Source: Alphaproteobacteria bacterium
Lineage (GTDB): Bacteria; Pseudomonadota; Alphaproteobacteria; VGDZ01
DNA: 50,586 nt
NCBI GenBank assembly: GCA_016869515.1
Contig: VGDZ01000015.1
Location: forward strand, 1-50,586
Direction: 5' to 3'
Shown: positions 13,249-18,626 of the stretch, one piece after another
Layout of the letters: each line of letters begins with the position of its first letter
Position numbering within the stretch: position 1 is the first letter of the stretch
The notes under the pieces: model-generated
What the model saw: only the letters and a program-made list of their open reading frames with translations
Database searches by the model: none
Told to the model about the DNA's origin: nothing
Program-made: the position numbers and the translations under genes

Positions 13249-14105
13249 CGCGCCCGCGCCTCGGCCAGGGCGTCGATATCGCCCGCCAGCCAGCGGTCCA
13301 GCAGCTCGGGCCGCTCCAGCGCCAGCTCGATCGCCAGCACCAAGTTGAGATGGTCGTAGGCGAAGCCGCCGGCCTGCAGCGCCTCGGCCATGCCAAACTG
13401 GGCGTCGTCGTAGATCGCCACCGATTCGCCGCTGAACGCTTCGGGCAGGCGGTTGCTTTCGCGCGCCTGGATCGAGGCCTCGACATCCTCGACGATCCAG
13501 CGGCAGACCTGGGCGTCGAAGGAATAGTAGCCGCGGCATTTCATCGGCCGCGCCGGATAGACCCCGCAATTGCCGTTCTCGTCGAACGGGCAGATCACCT
13601 TGAGCCGGCGATAGTCGTCGACCGAGAGCGCCCGGATCTGCGCCGCGCGTTCCTTCAGCCGCGCCAGCATCCGTTCCCACCGCTCGCCCTGATAGCTCTC
13701 GCGGATGTAGGCGATCAGGCCGGGCAGTTCGTAGGACGACATCGACACCTGCTGGTAGCAGCACCACGAGCAGCCGGCCTTGCAGGCCAGCGACTTGCCG
13801 CCCGGCGCCTCGGTGCGGTCGCGCGCCGCCCTCCAGGCGGTGTCGGCGAAGCGCATCGCCGCTTCGACCGTGCGAATCAGGGCGGCGCGATCGCGGCGTC
13901 CGCCCAGGCCCTTGGAAACGCGGTCGCGCACGGTATCGCGGACATAGTTCGGAATCGGCGCGTCCGCCGGCTGGCCGCGGCCGGCAAAGCGCCCCAGCAT
14001 GTCGGATAGCGCATCGCCCGCCGTCACCGGCGCCAGCGTGACCGGCGCCGTGCTGCCCGCGGCGGCGCGGTCCTTGGCGGCCTGGCGGCGCTGTTTGCGG
14101 TTCAC
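13245..14105 (-). CDS. YkgJ-family cysteine cluster protein
   Basis: This 286-residue protein has the zinc- or iron-chelating YkgJ domain. The cysteine cluster is visible as CKAGCSWCC near residue 109, then [24 protein letters not shown] in two pieces around residues 172-195. The N-terminal 60 residues are basic and Ala-rich, start [14 protein letters not shown], and look disordered. The GTG start at 14105 overlaps the radC stop as GTGA; frames further upstream lie inside radC in another phase. The biochemical role of the family is not established. The last codon overlaps the TetR-like start. Confidence 0.85.
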
Positions 14106-14797
14106 AGCAGCCCCGCGGTCTTGAAGCTGAGATGACGACCGCGACCGATCACCAGGTGATCGTGGACCGTGACGTTGAGCTTCTGGCCGGCGGCGACGAT
14201 GTCCTTGGTCACGGCAATGTCGGCCTTGGAGGGCGTGGGATCGCCGCTGGGATGGTTGTGCACCAGGATCAGCGCGGTCGCGCCCAGCTCGAGCGCGCGC
14301 TTGATCACCTCGCGCGGATAGACCGGGGTGTGGTCGACCGTTCCGGCCTCCTGCACTTCGTCGGCGATCAGCCCATTCTTGCGATCGAGAAACAGGATGC
14401 GGAACTGCTCGGTCTTGGCGAGCTCCATCGACAGCCGGCAATAGTCGACCAGCGAATCCCACGACGACAGCACGGTGCGCGCCTTGACCTGGGCCTTGAG
14501 CATGCGCGCGGCGGCGATCCTGACCAGGCGCAGTTGCGCTGCACCGGCCTCGCCCAAGCCCTTGACCGTGGCCAGCGCCGCGGGTTCGGCTGCGAACACG
14601 CCGGCCAGATCGCCGAACTTGGCCAGCAGCGCCTTGGCCAGCGGCTTGGTGTCGGCGCGCGGCTGGGCCGCCCACAGCAGCATCTCCAGCACCTCGTAAT
14701 CGGCCAGGGCGTCGTCGCCGCCGGCGGTCAGCCGCGCGCGCAACCGCCCGCGATGGCCGGCGTAATGCGGCTTTTGTTCAGGCTCGCTCTTGGACAT
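14102..14797 (-). CDS. radC: RadC/JAB-domain protein
   Basis: The 231-residue protein has the RadC layout: an N-terminal helix-hairpin-helix segment ([32 protein letters not shown]) and a C-terminal JAB/MPN metal site seen as the [14 protein letters not shown] motif near residue 175, with the upstream catalytic glutamate in DEVQEAGT. Despite its name the family is not proven to act in recombination repair. The start at 14797 is preceded by only 22 bases before the truncated oxygenase remnant. The same start codon and upstream bases are repeated at 16649, at the other side of the island, which shows that radC once followed the oxygenase gene directly. Confidence 0.93.
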
Positions 14798-15047
14798 GGA
14801 GCCGCGAGTCTAGGCGGCGTCAGGCGTAAAGAAAAGTCCCCAGCAGCAGCCAGCGCCGCGCTGCCTGCTCTTGGCCGGGCCGGGCCTGCAAGGGCGTGGT
14901 GTAATGCCATAGCGGCAGGCGATAGGCGGTGATGCCGCCCAATGTCGCCAACTCGATCTGCTGGCAGAAATGGCCGCCGGATTCGTAGACCAGCGATTGG
15001 CCGGCGACGGCGGGCGTGCTGAGGCTTACATGCACGTCGAGATAGCC
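14794..15047. repeat. Left copy of 254-base direct repeat bracketing the island
   Basis: Bases 14794-15047 match 16649-16902 at a constant offset of 1855 with no indel. By eye I count about 12 mismatches. The repeat covers the radC start codon, the 22-base spacer and the 3' end of the 2OG oxygenase gene. Identity stops abruptly after the shared CGAGATAGCC. Confidence 0.93.
14820..15047 (-). pseudogene. Truncated 3' remnant of a 2OG-Fe(II) oxygenase gene
   Basis: The frame encodes only the last 75 or so residues of the oxygenase found intact at 16675-17397, including the stretch LWHYTTPLQARPGQEQAARR that carries the distal iron histidine and the 2-oxoglutarate arginine. The N-terminal two thirds, with the HxD motif, are absent; upstream of 15047 the frame runs into unrelated island DNA. 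Differences from the intact copy are mostly synonymous or conservative (DVHVSLS versus DIHISLT), so this piece diverged while its parent was under selection. It is probably an allele fragment from a related donor. It should not make an active enzyme. Confidence 0.85.
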
Positions 15048-15150
15048 TGAATACGAAGTGGCAGGCAGTACAAGTAGGAAATCTTCTTCGGCGGGTAGCC
15101 TAGGCCGCGTGCATATGCTAGAGGTTGTGCCCTTCAATGGGAAGGCGGAC

Positions 15151-15639
15151 ATGGCGGCAAAGCTACGGATTCGCTACGGCGACTTGGAAATCGAATGCGA
15201 GGGTGAGCCCTCGTTCATTAAAGGCGAAGTTCCTCAGATCGTAGAAGCGATTACAAAGCTTTTACATGCTGCTCCTAATGCGCCCGCAGGGGTGAAAGGT
15301 GCGAGCGGCGCGGGCGCTGGTAAGTCGGCCTCAACTGGCAAGTTGACGACGACTACCAAGGCTATTGCGCTCGCAAAGGGCTATAAGGAAGGCCCAGACC
15401 TAGTTAAAGCTGCCTTAGCTTGTCTTCATGCGGTCCATGGCAAAGAGTGTGCTACTCAGGCTGAAATCATCGCTGAGATGAAGACGGTTTCGACGTTGTA
15501 CAAACTATCAATGCAAAATAATATGGGTCGAACGGTTAGAACGCTTATGACTAAGGGAGATGTTAATGAGCCTGAGATCGGCAAATATGTTTTATCAGAT
15601 AAAGCTAAGGCGGACGTGCTTGATGGGATAACAAAATGA
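15151..15639 (+). CDS. Unknown small protein, first gene of the island HEPN module
   Basis: I do not recognise a named family. The 162-residue product has an N-terminal beta-rich motif (KLRIRYGDLEIECEGEPSFI) followed by an amphipathic helix (EVPQIVEAITKLLHAA). A Gly/Ala/Ser/Thr/Lys-rich linker at about residues 45-75 leads to a C-terminal helical domain that could be a winged helix (ATQAEIIAEMK ... MGRTVRTLMTKGDV ... KYVLSDKAKADVL). The ATG at 15151 has a good ribosome site (GGGAAGG at 15139-15145); the open frame extends to 15058 but that part crosses the island junction. Its stop overlaps the next start as ATGA, so the two genes are coupled. A partner or antitoxin-like role is an inference. 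Confidence 0.75.
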   Translation: MAAKLRIRYGDLEIECEGEPSFIKGEVPQIVEAITKLLHAAPNAPAGVKGASGAGAGKSASTGKLTTTTKAIALAKGYKEGPDLVKAALACLHAVHGKECATQAEIIAEMKTVSTLYKLSMQNNMGRTVRTLMTKGDVNEPEIGKYVLSDKAKADVLDGITK

Positions 15640-16361
15640 CTAGGGAAATAAAGAATATTCTAGCTAGTAAGAACTATAGCAAGACTGACAAGATTTTGCT
15701 AATTTTATCTACACAAAATATCCCGATGAAGATTAAGGAGATAAGAGACGCAGGTGTAAAGTTAGGTTTTCGTGAGATTCAGACAATCAACGTCAATTCA
15801 CATTTAAATGGAACGAGGGGAAAGGCTACGCTTCTGCCAGATGGATGGGAACTTACAGAGAGTGGTAGAGAGTATCTACTAGGTAAAGGATGTCTAAAAA
15901 GTGTTACTGCTTTAACGCCGTTATTGAGAAAGGTAGAACAATATGTTACTGGAATAACTTTAAAGGAAACTAAGGAATTTATCAATGAATCTATTGAGTG
16001 TGCTAACAGACAATTGTATCGAGCGGCAGTGGTTCTTAGTTGGATTGGGGCTGTTTCTATTTTGCACCACTATGTTTTAAAAAATTATCTGACTGAGTTT
16101 AATAAAGAGGCAATTGAAAAGAAACTAATTAAGAAGCCTATTAAAAATCAGGACGGCCTAACTAAGATCGGCGAGAACGATTTTCTACAGGTGATCCAGG
16201 CAATTTAGATAATCACGAATGACGTGAAGAAAGAGCTTATAAGCTGCTTGGACAGAAGGAATAGCTGCGGCCATCCCAATAACATCAAAATGCAAGAGCC
16301 AGCGGTGGCGGCCCATTTGGATAATCTAGTACTTTACGTTTTCAGCAAATTTGCCGGCTAA
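15636..16361 (+). pseudogene. Winged-helix plus HEPN-type protein split by an in-frame TAG stop
   Basis: Translation from ATG at 15636 gives 190 residues and halts at TAG 16206-16208. The same frame then stays open for 50 more codons to TAA at 16359-16361 and reads as clear protein, including the R-x4-H motif RNSCGH (residues 208-213) followed by PN, the hallmark of HEPN ribonuclease-type domains. Residues 16-85 look like a winged helix (SKTDKILLILS, LTESGREYLL). Residues 90-241 would form the HEPN helices (LYRAAVVLSWIGAVSILHHY). The stop removes the presumed catalytic motif, so the present product is probably inactive. Whether the stop is a mutation, a base-call error or a site of readthrough cannot be told here. 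Confidence 0.72.
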
Positions 16362-16648
16362 GTGTCACAAAGTTGACGCATCGCTTGGTGGCGTAAACCG
16401 CCACGGGATTGCCGGAGGCTCCAACTCCTGAGAAGGTGGAGCCATGATGAACAAGACAACGAACAAGTTCTCGCCTGTGGTGCGTAGCCGGGCGGTGCGG
16501 CTGGTGCTCGATCACGAACACGAGCATCGGTCGCGCTGGGCGGCGATCTCGTCGGTGGCCGGCAAGATCGGCTGCACGGCGCAGACGCTGAACGAGTGAA
16601 CCAGGAAGAGAGAGATCGACAGCGGCATGCGGGCCGGCGTGCCGACGT
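16362..16648 (+). mobile_element. Fragment of an IS3-type insertion sequence with truncated orfA
   Basis: An ORF starting [20 protein letters not shown] at 16444 matches the N-terminal helix-turn-helix region of IS3-family OrfA ([10 protein letters not shown]). A TGA at 16597-16599 stands where relatives have a Trp codon. The frame continues as the family-like [11 protein letters not shown] until 16648, where it ends abruptly at the direct-repeat junction. Two perfect stems precede the ORF: GTGGCG/CGCCAC (16388-16404) and GGCTCCA/TGGAGCC (16417-16443), a common feature ahead of transposase genes. orfB, the catalytic part and the right end are missing. The element cannot move on its own; it may mark how the island or its deletion junction arose. 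Confidence 0.8.
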
Positions 16649-16902
16649 ACATGGAGCGGCGAGTCTAGGCGGCGTCAGGCGTAAAGAAAAGTCCCCAGCA
16701 GCAGCCAGCGCCGCGCTGCCTGCTCTTGGCCGGGCCGGGCCTGCAAGGGCGTGGTGTAATGCCACAGCGGCAGGCGATAGGCGGTGATGCCGCCCAGCGT
16801 CGCCAACTCGATCTGCTGGCAGAAATGGCCGCCGGATTCGTAAACCAGCGATTGGCCGGCGACGGCGGGCGTGGTGAGGCTGATGTGGATATCGAGATAG
16901 CC
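16649..16902. repeat. Right copy of 254-base direct repeat bracketing the island
   Basis: This copy is the native 3' end of the intact oxygenase gene plus the 22-base spacer and a lone radC start codon at its left end. It matches 14794-15047 without gaps. It keeps the intact gene's own stop codon at 16675. Confidence 0.93.
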
Positions 16903-17397
16903 CGCCCGTGCCGCCGGCAGGTCGGGAAAATCGTCGGTATGCGGGCCGGCATAATCGCCCGCGCCATAGCACGAGACTTGGATGCCCCAGGCCGGCCGCA
17001 AGCGCCGCCCAGCCAGGGCTTGAGCGAATTCCCGAAAGCTGTCGGAGCGCAGGAGACGCACCAGCCCGATGCGCTGGGCCCGGCGATAGGATTTGGAATC
17101 CCGCCGCGCCAGCAGCGCGGTGGCGAAACGCATGGTCTTGCCCAGGCGCTCGGCGGTGGCGCGGCGCGGGCGGCGGGCCTCGATCGGATGCGACACCGGC
17201 ACCAGCGCCGGCCGCATCTCGGCCTCGAGTCGCGCCAGCCAGGCGCGCGCCGGCTCCGCCGCGATGGCGCCGTCGATCGACAGCACGCGCTGATCGGGAT
17301 CGGCCAGGATCCCGGTCAGGGTGCGATCGCGGCCTTCGAGAACGCGCCGGCCGGCGGGCGACAGCAGATCGGCAAAGTCGCGGGGCGGCGCGCTCAT
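16675..17397 (-). CDS. 2-oxoglutarate/Fe(II)-dependent oxygenase, intact copy
   Basis: The 240-residue protein has the double-stranded beta-helix signature: the HxD iron site in GPHTDDFPD near residue 151, the third ligand histidine in LPLWHYTTPL, and the 2-oxoglutarate-binding arginine in QAARRWLLLG. Such enzymes hydroxylate proteins or small molecules using oxygen and 2-oxoglutarate; the substrate is unknown. The ATG at 17397 overlaps the MFS stop as ATGA, so it was chosen over a longer open frame. The last 75 codons are duplicated at 14820 on the other side of the island. In the ancestral order radC would have followed 22 bases after its stop. Confidence 0.88.
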   Translation of the reverse strand: MSAPPRDFADLLSPAGRRVLEGRDRTLTGILADPDQRVLSIDGAIAAEPARAWLARLEAEMRPALVPVSHPIEARRPRRATAERLGKTMRFATALLARRDSKSYRRAQRIGLVRLLRSDSFREFAQALAGRRLRPAWGIQVSCYGAGDYAGPHTDDFPDLPAARAGYLDIHISLTTPAVAGQSLVYESGGHFCQQIELATLGGITAYRLPLWHYTTPLQARPGQEQAARRWLLLGTFLYA

Positions 17398-18626
17398 GGC
17401 CGCGGCCTGATGTCCTTGACCGGCAAATAGATCAAGAGCCCGAGCAGCAGGCATCCGCCGACCGCGCCGAAGGCGGCGCGATAGGCGATTTCGGGAATGG
17501 CCTGGCCGGCCGGGGTCATGGCGCCGACCACCAGCCCGGTGAGGAACTGGACGAAGGCGGCGCCGCCCATGGTGGCGACGTTGAGCGTAGTGACGCCGCG
17601 CCCGACCAGCTCGGGCGGAAAGATCGCCCGTCCATGGGCCAGCACGGCGACGACATAGCTGGAGACGAAGCAGATCGCGACCAGCAGGCTGACCGCGGCG
17701 ACCAAAGACAGGCCCGGGATCGCCGCCAGGATCAGGAACAAGGCCACCGTCGCGGCGGCGCCCGGGACGACGATGAACTTACGGGTGTTGAAGATACGGT
17801 CCAGGGGCCCCATCGCCAGATAGCCCAGGATCGAGGCGCCGACCATGGCCAGCAAAAGATTGCCGCGCGTCACCGCATCGACCCGATGCACATCGTTGAG
17901 ATAAGGCCCGCCCCACAGCCCGAGCACGGCGATGGTCGAGGCGTAGGAGAAGAAATTGACCGCGAAGACGTGATGCAACTGGCGCTCGCGCAGCACCTTG
18001 CCGACGCCGGCCAGGACCTCGGCCAGGGACTCGGAACCGCCGCCAGGGGCCGCCGCGCCGGGCGGGGAATCGCGAACCATCAGACCCAGGAGCGCGGCCG
18101 CCGCGACCGCCGCTCCGGCCATGCCGATGAACGCCTCGCGCCAGCCCCATTGCGCCGCCACCCAGGCCAGCGGCGTGGTCGACAGCGCGTTGCCGGCGGT
18201 GCCGATGGCGATCAGCAGCGAAACCATGGTGGCGAAACGCTCGGGCGGCATCCAGCGCGAGAACACCACCATCGATCCGACCAGCGAGCACGAACAGCCC
18301 AGCCCCAGCACCACCCGCGCCAGAGTGAGCTCGGTCAGGCCTTGGCCGAGCGCGAACCACATGGCGCCGACGGCGTTGAGCAGCATCACCGCCGCCATCA
18401 CCCGCCGCGGCCCGAAGCGATCCAGCAGCATCCCGGCCGGGATCTGCGACACGGCGAAGGTGATGAAGAAGGCGCTGGTCAGCGTCGCCAGCGCCTCGGC
18501 GCCGAGGCCGAGATCGCGCATCAGCTCGGGCCCGATGGTGCCGTTGGCCGAGCGGAAGAACATGCTGAGGGTGTAGCCGGCGACCAGCGCGCCGAAGATC
18601 GTCCAGGCTTGGCGCGCGCGGCTCAC
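17394..18626 (-). CDS. Major facilitator superfamily transporter
   Basis: The 410-residue protein has about 12 hydrophobic segments and the MFS loop pattern between helices 2 and 3 (GMLLDRFGPRRVMA) repeated in weaker form in the second half (GPLDRIFNTRKFIV). The N-terminus starts SRARQAWTIFGALVAGYTLS from a GTG at 18626, which overlaps the map stop as GTGA; the open frame runs much further upstream but that part is the antisense of map. The substrate is not evident. It lies between map and the oxygenase gene with four-base overlaps on both sides, so the three are translationally coupled. Confidence 0.9.
   Translation of the reverse strand: MSRARQAWTIFGALVAGYTLSMFFRSANGTIGPELMRDLGLGAEALATLTSAFFITFAVSQIPAGMLLDRFGPRRVMAAVMLLNAVGAMWFALGQGLTELTLARVVLGLGCSCSLVGSMVVFSRWMPPERFATMVSLLIAIGTAGNALSTTPLAWVAAQWGWREAFIGMAGAAVAAAALLGLMVRDSPPGAAAPGGGSESLAEVLAGVGKVLRERQLHHVFAVNFFSYASTIAVLGLWGGPYLNDVHRVDAVTRGNLLLAMVGASILGYLAMGPLDRIFNTRKFIVVPGAAATVALFLILAAIPGLSLVAAVSLLVAICFVSSYVVAVLAHGRAIFPPELVGRGVTTLNVATMGGAAFVQFLTGLVVGAMTPAGQAIPEIAYRAAFGAVGGCLLLGLLIYLPVKDIRPRP

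What the first reader, a model, noticed from the sequence alone, without database searches (positions are those of the whole stretch)
15151..16361. Two-gene module with a winged-helix/HEPN protein in an AT-rich island, possible undescribed defence or toxin system
Two plus-strand genes overlap as ATGA inside a compositionally foreign island. The second has a winged-helix-like N-terminus and, when read past one TAG, a C-terminal helical domain with R-x4-H (RNSCGHPN), the signature of HEPN ribonucleases found in toxins, abortive-infection and anti-phage systems. The first gene encodes a small protein with a distinctive RIRYGDLEIECEG strand motif, a low-complexity linker and a C-terminal helical domain. 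I do not recognise this pair as a named system. The domain reading is from motifs and predicted helices; the defence role is inference from island context and coupling.
Basis: partly seen in the sequence, partly recalled or inferred. Interest (0 to 1): 0.78.

Follow-up and report, generated by a model that had tools for sequence, protein, structure and literature searches.

The report
Broken copy of undescribed HEPN cassette
This is a probably recently broken copy of a widespread but apparently unnamed two-gene bacterial cassette, in which one gene encodes a predicted RNA-cutting (HEPN) effector and the gene just upstream encodes its variable DNA-binding-like partner; it is likely a toxin or phage-defence pair, but no activity has been shown.

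Summary
Two plus-strand genes (15151-15639, 15636-16208, overlapping as ATGA) lie in a 37-49% G+C insert in a 65-70% G+C genome. Gene 2 has an in-frame TAG at codon 191; past it the frame stays open to a conserved HEPN tail. AlphaFold2 gives gene 2 a winged helix (2-83) plus a HEPN bundle (93-239; mean pLDDT 94). R208, N209, H213 and P214 are invariant in 79 aligned sequences. Gene 1 is a beta-hairpin/helix head, a disordered linker and a winged helix.

The pair is a conserved cassette. Of 89 non-redundant loci with gene-2-like frames, 61 have gene 1 immediately upstream and 19 another winged-helix partner; no other neighbour recurs in more than five. Hosts include Proteobacteria, Planctomycetota, Chloroflexota and Bacteroidota; some copies lie in prophages. 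None of 78 aligned homologues has the stop, so the window copy is truncated and probably disarmed. Pfam and NCBIfam do not recognise the family; its HEPN domain is distantly related to the PD-T7-3 and Dandelion proteins.

Best reading: a HEPN ribonuclease effector restrained by a variable winged-helix partner. RNA cleavage, restraint and anti-phage action are inferences, not shown.

The parts
14794..15047 (.). left copy of a 254-bp direct repeat: duplicated 3' end (about the last 83 codons plus downstream bases) of the gene at 16675-17454, read on the minus strand
   Evidence: 95% identical to 16649-16902 (12 mismatches in 254); protein match 90% over residues 177-259
15048..15150 (+). upstream region of the cassette (54% G+C); presumed leader or promoter, untested
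   Evidence: composition; no Rfam match
15151..15639 (+). gene 1: partner protein, 162 aa. Beta-hairpin plus helix (3-40), disordered linker (48-61), winged helix (69-157)
   Evidence: model mean pLDDT 86; winged-helix structural matches; homologue in G122 at E 1e-17 from the window protein alone
15636..16208 (+). gene 2 up to its TAG stop: 190 aa, winged helix (2-83) and the first HEPN helices; lacks the R-x4-H motif
16206..16208 (+). in-frame TAG at codon 191; Ser or Gly in 76 of 78 aligned homologues
16209..16361 (+). remainder of gene 2, still in frame: last HEPN helices with RNSCGHP (R208 to P214), and its stop
   Evidence: conservation of the tail
16441..16640 (+). possible remnant of an IS3-type transposase orfA with an in-frame stop; by eye only, not matched by PF01527 in the own-genome search
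   Evidence: sequence
16649..16902 (.). right copy of the 254-bp direct repeat, part of the intact gene at 16675-17454 (minus strand; by eye a 2OG-Fe(II) oxygenase)

Best explanation
A mobile, self-contained two-gene cassette. In intact relatives gene 2 is most likely a homodimeric HEPN ribonuclease whose active site is built from R208 and H213 and which stops growth by cutting RNA when released. Gene 1, encoded just upstream and probably made from the same transcript, is the fast-evolving partner: a winged-helix protein with a hairpin-helix head that binds gene 2 or nucleic acid, keeps the ribonuclease off and senses the trigger. In this window the cassette arrived as a foreign insert beside radC, and gene 2 now carries a stop codon, so the effector is probably dead here while gene 1 is intact. 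Shown here: domain architecture (by prediction), conservation of the pair, motif conservation, the stop, the insert. Inferred: RNA cleavage, restraint by gene 1, the trigger, the anti-phage role.
For: HEPN fold and R-N-x3-H-P motif. Of 89 non-redundant loci with a gene-2-like frame over 200 aa, 61 have gene 1 adjacent upstream on the same strand, 17 another winged-helix partner type on the same strand and 2 have that type divergent. The model-estimated start of gene 2 overlaps the gene 1 stop by about 8-17 nt in most pairs. No other neighbour family recurs in more than 5 of 88 loci. Gene 1 and gene 2 distances correlate (Mantel r 0.54, 0 of 5000 permutations), as expected if they are inherited together. 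The effector is well conserved and the partner poorly (mean column identity 51% vs 32%). 62 of 80 members match the PADLOC profile PD-T7-3 (best 1.4e-8); the profile matches Dandelion-hepn in the PDB (E 1e-4). Copies lie in phage or prophage contigs. A solved precedent for a winged-helix protein and a HEPN ribonuclease under one control is retron-Kva2 (PMC13405049).
Against: No activity data. Foldseek gave no PDB hit below E 0.001, and the HEPN Z scores are in the range where helical bundles can match by fold alone (note). Some HEPN proteins are catalytically inactive. Neighbourhoods show only scattered restriction or defence genes. Two class genomes carry a gene-1 relative with no HEPN gene found next to it, and L095 and L096 carry gene 2 without a recognisable partner.
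Confidence: 0.6

Rival explanations
1. A type II toxin-antitoxin addiction module: gene 1 is a DNA-binding antitoxin that neutralises the HEPN toxin and represses the operon; its benefit is plasmid or prophage maintenance, not defence.
For: Small upstream partner with a winged helix and disordered linker, overlapping genes; presence on a plasmid and in prophages; MNT-HEPN toxins among the structural matches.
Against: Gene 2 carries its own winged helix, unusual for a simple toxin; the partner is exchanged between two or more types, which fits a sensor as well as an antitoxin. It differs from the main reading mainly in purpose.
Confidence: 0.25
2. A transcription-regulator pair: both proteins bind DNA through winged helices and the HEPN part is a non-catalytic dimerisation domain.
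For: Winged helices in both proteins; a HEPN-like regulator, MtlR, is among the weaker structural matches.
Against: R208, N209, H213 and P214 are invariant across 79 divergent proteins, as expected of a catalytic motif rather than of a dimer interface alone; no regulated neighbour recurs.
Confidence: 0.12
3. The stop is an assembly or sequencing error, or is read through, and the window copy is functional.
For: The tail is still in frame and conserved (56% match to consensus, at a similar rank among homologues as the rest of the protein).
Against: None of 78 aligned homologues has a stop here (they were chosen as open frames), and the full-length matches in the class survey have none. No reads were available and TAG recoding was not tested.
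Confidence: 0.2

Closest known systems
PD-T7-3 (PMC9519451; PADLOC PDLC04108) and its structural relative BxaP (PMC10799925)
   Same: related HEPN domain, matched by 62 of 80 members including the window protein; defence function shown for those proteins
   Different: PD-T7-3 is a single protein (profile of 432 positions, the window protein matches only positions 5-121); here the HEPN follows a winged helix in a 241-residue frame paired with a separate partner gene
Dandelion (PDB 9wx2, 9wxf)
   Same: HEPN domain related by sequence profile (E 1e-4), with its R-x4-H (RHLSAH) aligned to ours
   Different: 460-residue single chain with HEPN at its N-terminus; no paper on it was found in the library
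Type IX retron Kva2 (PMC13405049)
   Same: operon with a winged-helix protein and a HEPN ribonuclease; HEPN held inactive in a complex until triggered; tRNA depletion
   Different: needs a reverse transcriptase and msDNA; its HEPN lacks the contiguous R-x4-H motif; no third gene recurs beside the present pair
MNT-HEPN toxin-antitoxin pairs (SO_3166/SO_3165, PMC4621449)
   Same: two-gene module with a HEPN toxin; HEPN structures match
   Different: partner is a nucleotidyltransferase, not a winged-helix protein; the HEPN toxin has no winged helix
EC042_2821 family of the HEPN survey (PMC3710099)
   Same: HEPN fused to a winged helix
   Different: also carries a restriction-endonuclease domain and occurs in restriction operons

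Membership tests
HEPN superfamily | all-helical bundle of the HEPN fold | tested here: met
   model mean pLDDT 94; the eleven top structural rows are HEPN-fold chains, some by title and the rest by my knowledge (2hsb Z 11.3, rmsd 2.6, 112 aligned); sequence profile matches Dandelion-hepn
HEPN superfamily | R-x4-H motif | tested here: met
   R208 and H213 invariant in 79 sequences; in the window the motif lies beyond the stop
HEPN superfamily | ribonuclease activity as a dimer | not testable with these tools
   needs biochemistry
PD-T7-3 | homologous HEPN domain | tested here: met
   62 of 80 members, best E 1.4e-8
PD-T7-3 | full-length single-protein architecture of about 430 residues | tested here: not met
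   match limited to profile positions 5-121 of 432; window frame 241 residues with a winged helix in front
Type IX retron | reverse transcriptase gene beside the winged-helix and HEPN genes | tested here: not met
   the insert holds only the two genes; no neighbour family recurs beyond 5 of 88 loci; no Rfam match in the insert
Type IX retron | HEPN without contiguous R-x4-H | tested here: not met
   the motif is contiguous and invariant
MNT-HEPN toxin-antitoxin | nucleotidyltransferase partner | tested here: not met
   partner is hairpin-helix plus winged helix; no Pfam nucleotidyltransferase match in 62 partners

The most novel reading that the evidence does not exclude
An undescribed, widespread class of two-component immune cassette: an exchangeable winged-helix sensor with an unfamiliar hairpin-helix head (possibly reading aberrant nucleic acid or a phage DNA-binding protein) that gates a winged-helix HEPN ribonuclease.
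Probability: 0.35. Interest if true: 0.75.

Novelty: new variant of a known kind. Interest (0 to 1): 0.55.

Why it matters
HEPN ribonucleases are among the commonest effectors in bacterial immunity. This family appears in many phyla, has no entry in Pfam or NCBIfam, and nearly always comes with a variable partner, so it offers a compact system in which to ask how a winged-helix protein gates a ribonuclease. The window adds a natural case of an effector lost while its partner stays intact.

Tried and rejected
Pfam, NCBIfam, PADLOC and PHROGs on the window proteins alone gave only a weak PADLOC hit and one PHROG of unknown function. Searches of annotated phages found nothing, and of plasmids one distant relative. 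My first gene-2 HMM was contaminated, because a protein file held several records, so it also hit gene 1; I discarded it and rebuilt clean profiles from A7 and A8 (superseded by 99). Sequence homology between the winged helices of genes 1 and 2 is not supported (hhalign probability 4.5%). Membership in type IX retrons, MNT-HEPN and PD-T7-3 was tested and rejected by architecture. No paper naming the pair was found, but the library omits most subscription journals, so a published name cannot be excluded. Rfam found nothing in the insert.

Full report
What is there. Gene 1 (15151-15639) and gene 2 (15636-16208) overlap as ATGA in a low-G+C insert. Gene 2 stops at a TAG, codon 191, and the frame continues to 16361 with RNSCGHPN. 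The own genome holds a single copy of gene 2.

The insert. It is bracketed by a 254-bp direct repeat, 95% identical (14794-15047 and 16649-16902). The right copy is part of an intact gene (16675-17454, minus strand; by eye a 2OG-Fe(II) oxygenase); the left copy is the detached last 83 codons of that gene, next to the start of radC (14102-14797, minus strand; named by eye). Seven of the 12 mismatches lie in the last 31 bases of the left copy, towards the insert. This fits entry by recombination at a homologous gene end, or integration of an element that brought its own gene end; no integrase remains. The one clear relative of the oxygenase in 40 class genomes sits in another context, so the empty site was not seen.

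Relatives. A class search found a full-length homologue with the same gene order. A scan of one genome per species gave 80 loci in Alpha-, Beta- and Gammaproteobacteria, Planctomycetota, Chloroflexota, Bacteroidota, Nitrospira, Verrucomicrobia and others (the archaeal bin may be misassigned). That scan keyed partly on RN[GSA]CGHPN, so its motif conservation is biased. A profile search of whole genomes, which is not, found a match in 10 of 385 class genomes including the window's own, about six of them full length; the ones I read keep RNxx(A/G)HP.

The pair. In 89 non-redundant loci with gene-2-like frames above 200 aa, 61 have gene 1 just upstream, 17 a second winged-helix partner type on the same strand, 2 that type divergent, 8 none, and 1 lies at a contig edge. 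Of the 8, L014, L015 and L017 are about 450-aa single proteins, L008 has a different winged-helix-like neighbour, L098 has a gene-1-like head in a broken frame, and L095 and L096 lack a partner; L113 was not read. About eight loci hold both partner types. Model-estimated starts overlap stops by about 8-17 nt. Distances of the two proteins agree by Mantel test (r 0.54); this shows joint inheritance and does not by itself show coevolution of an interface. No other family recurs in more than 5 of 88 loci. In the class survey two gene-1 relatives had no HEPN gene beside them.

Structure. Gene 2, with the TAG read as Q for the model: winged helix 2-83 and helices 93-239, mean pLDDT 94. HEPN chains lead the structural list with Z about 9-11 over some 112 residues, and PadR/MarR-type winged helices match the N-terminus. 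Gene 1: hairpin-helix 3-40, disorder 48-61, winged helix 69-157. The head gave no fold match of its own, but it was barely tested.

The stop. Residue 191 is Ser or Gly in 76 of 78 aligned relatives, and the tail after it is still conserved. The 190-residue product lacks R208, H213 and the last helices, so it should be inactive. Assembly error cannot be excluded. The aligned relatives were picked as open frames, but the full-length matches of the class survey also have no internal stop.

Context. Copies occur in phage contigs: beside structural genes in a Methylobacterium prophage (L009/L089), beside a replication gene (L010), and beside a DNA methyltransferase and tail genes (L008). Of 128 flanking genes a few are restriction, Dpd or candidate defence genes and four are integrases; there was no control, so enrichment is not established.

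Known systems. Related HEPN domains occur in PD-T7-3 and Dandelion. Retron-Kva2 shows a winged-helix protein and a HEPN ribonuclease under one control, but with a reverse transcriptase. The present pair plausibly works like these and, by architecture, belongs to none of them.

Verdict. A new two-gene variant of HEPN effector systems, real and widespread, represented in this window by a copy whose effector is broken. The ribonuclease and restraint model is the best-supported reading (0.6); an anti-phage role is plausible and untested.

Noticed in passing
14794-15047 and 16649-16902: 254-bp direct repeat duplicating the 3' end of a 2OG-oxygenase-like gene on both sides of the insert, with mismatches concentrated towards the insert; possible trace of how the cassette entered.
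   Followed up: partly
16441-16640: Possible IS3-type transposase orfA remnant with an in-frame stop; not matched by PF01527 in the own-genome search.
   Followed up: partly
L111:1480-2746 and L112:760-2031: A related split arrangement: a 247-249 aa gene followed by a HEPN-only gene of 172 aa with RNQCAHP; the first gene ends in a strand-helix element (INIQLHLPE...).
   Followed up: partly
L003, L028, L035, L051, L055, L071, L077: Three-gene versions in which a second winged-helix-type partner precedes gene 1.
   Followed up: partly
L118 and L119: Gene-1 relatives without a HEPN gene next to them; in L119 a short winged-helix-like gene follows.
   Followed up: partly
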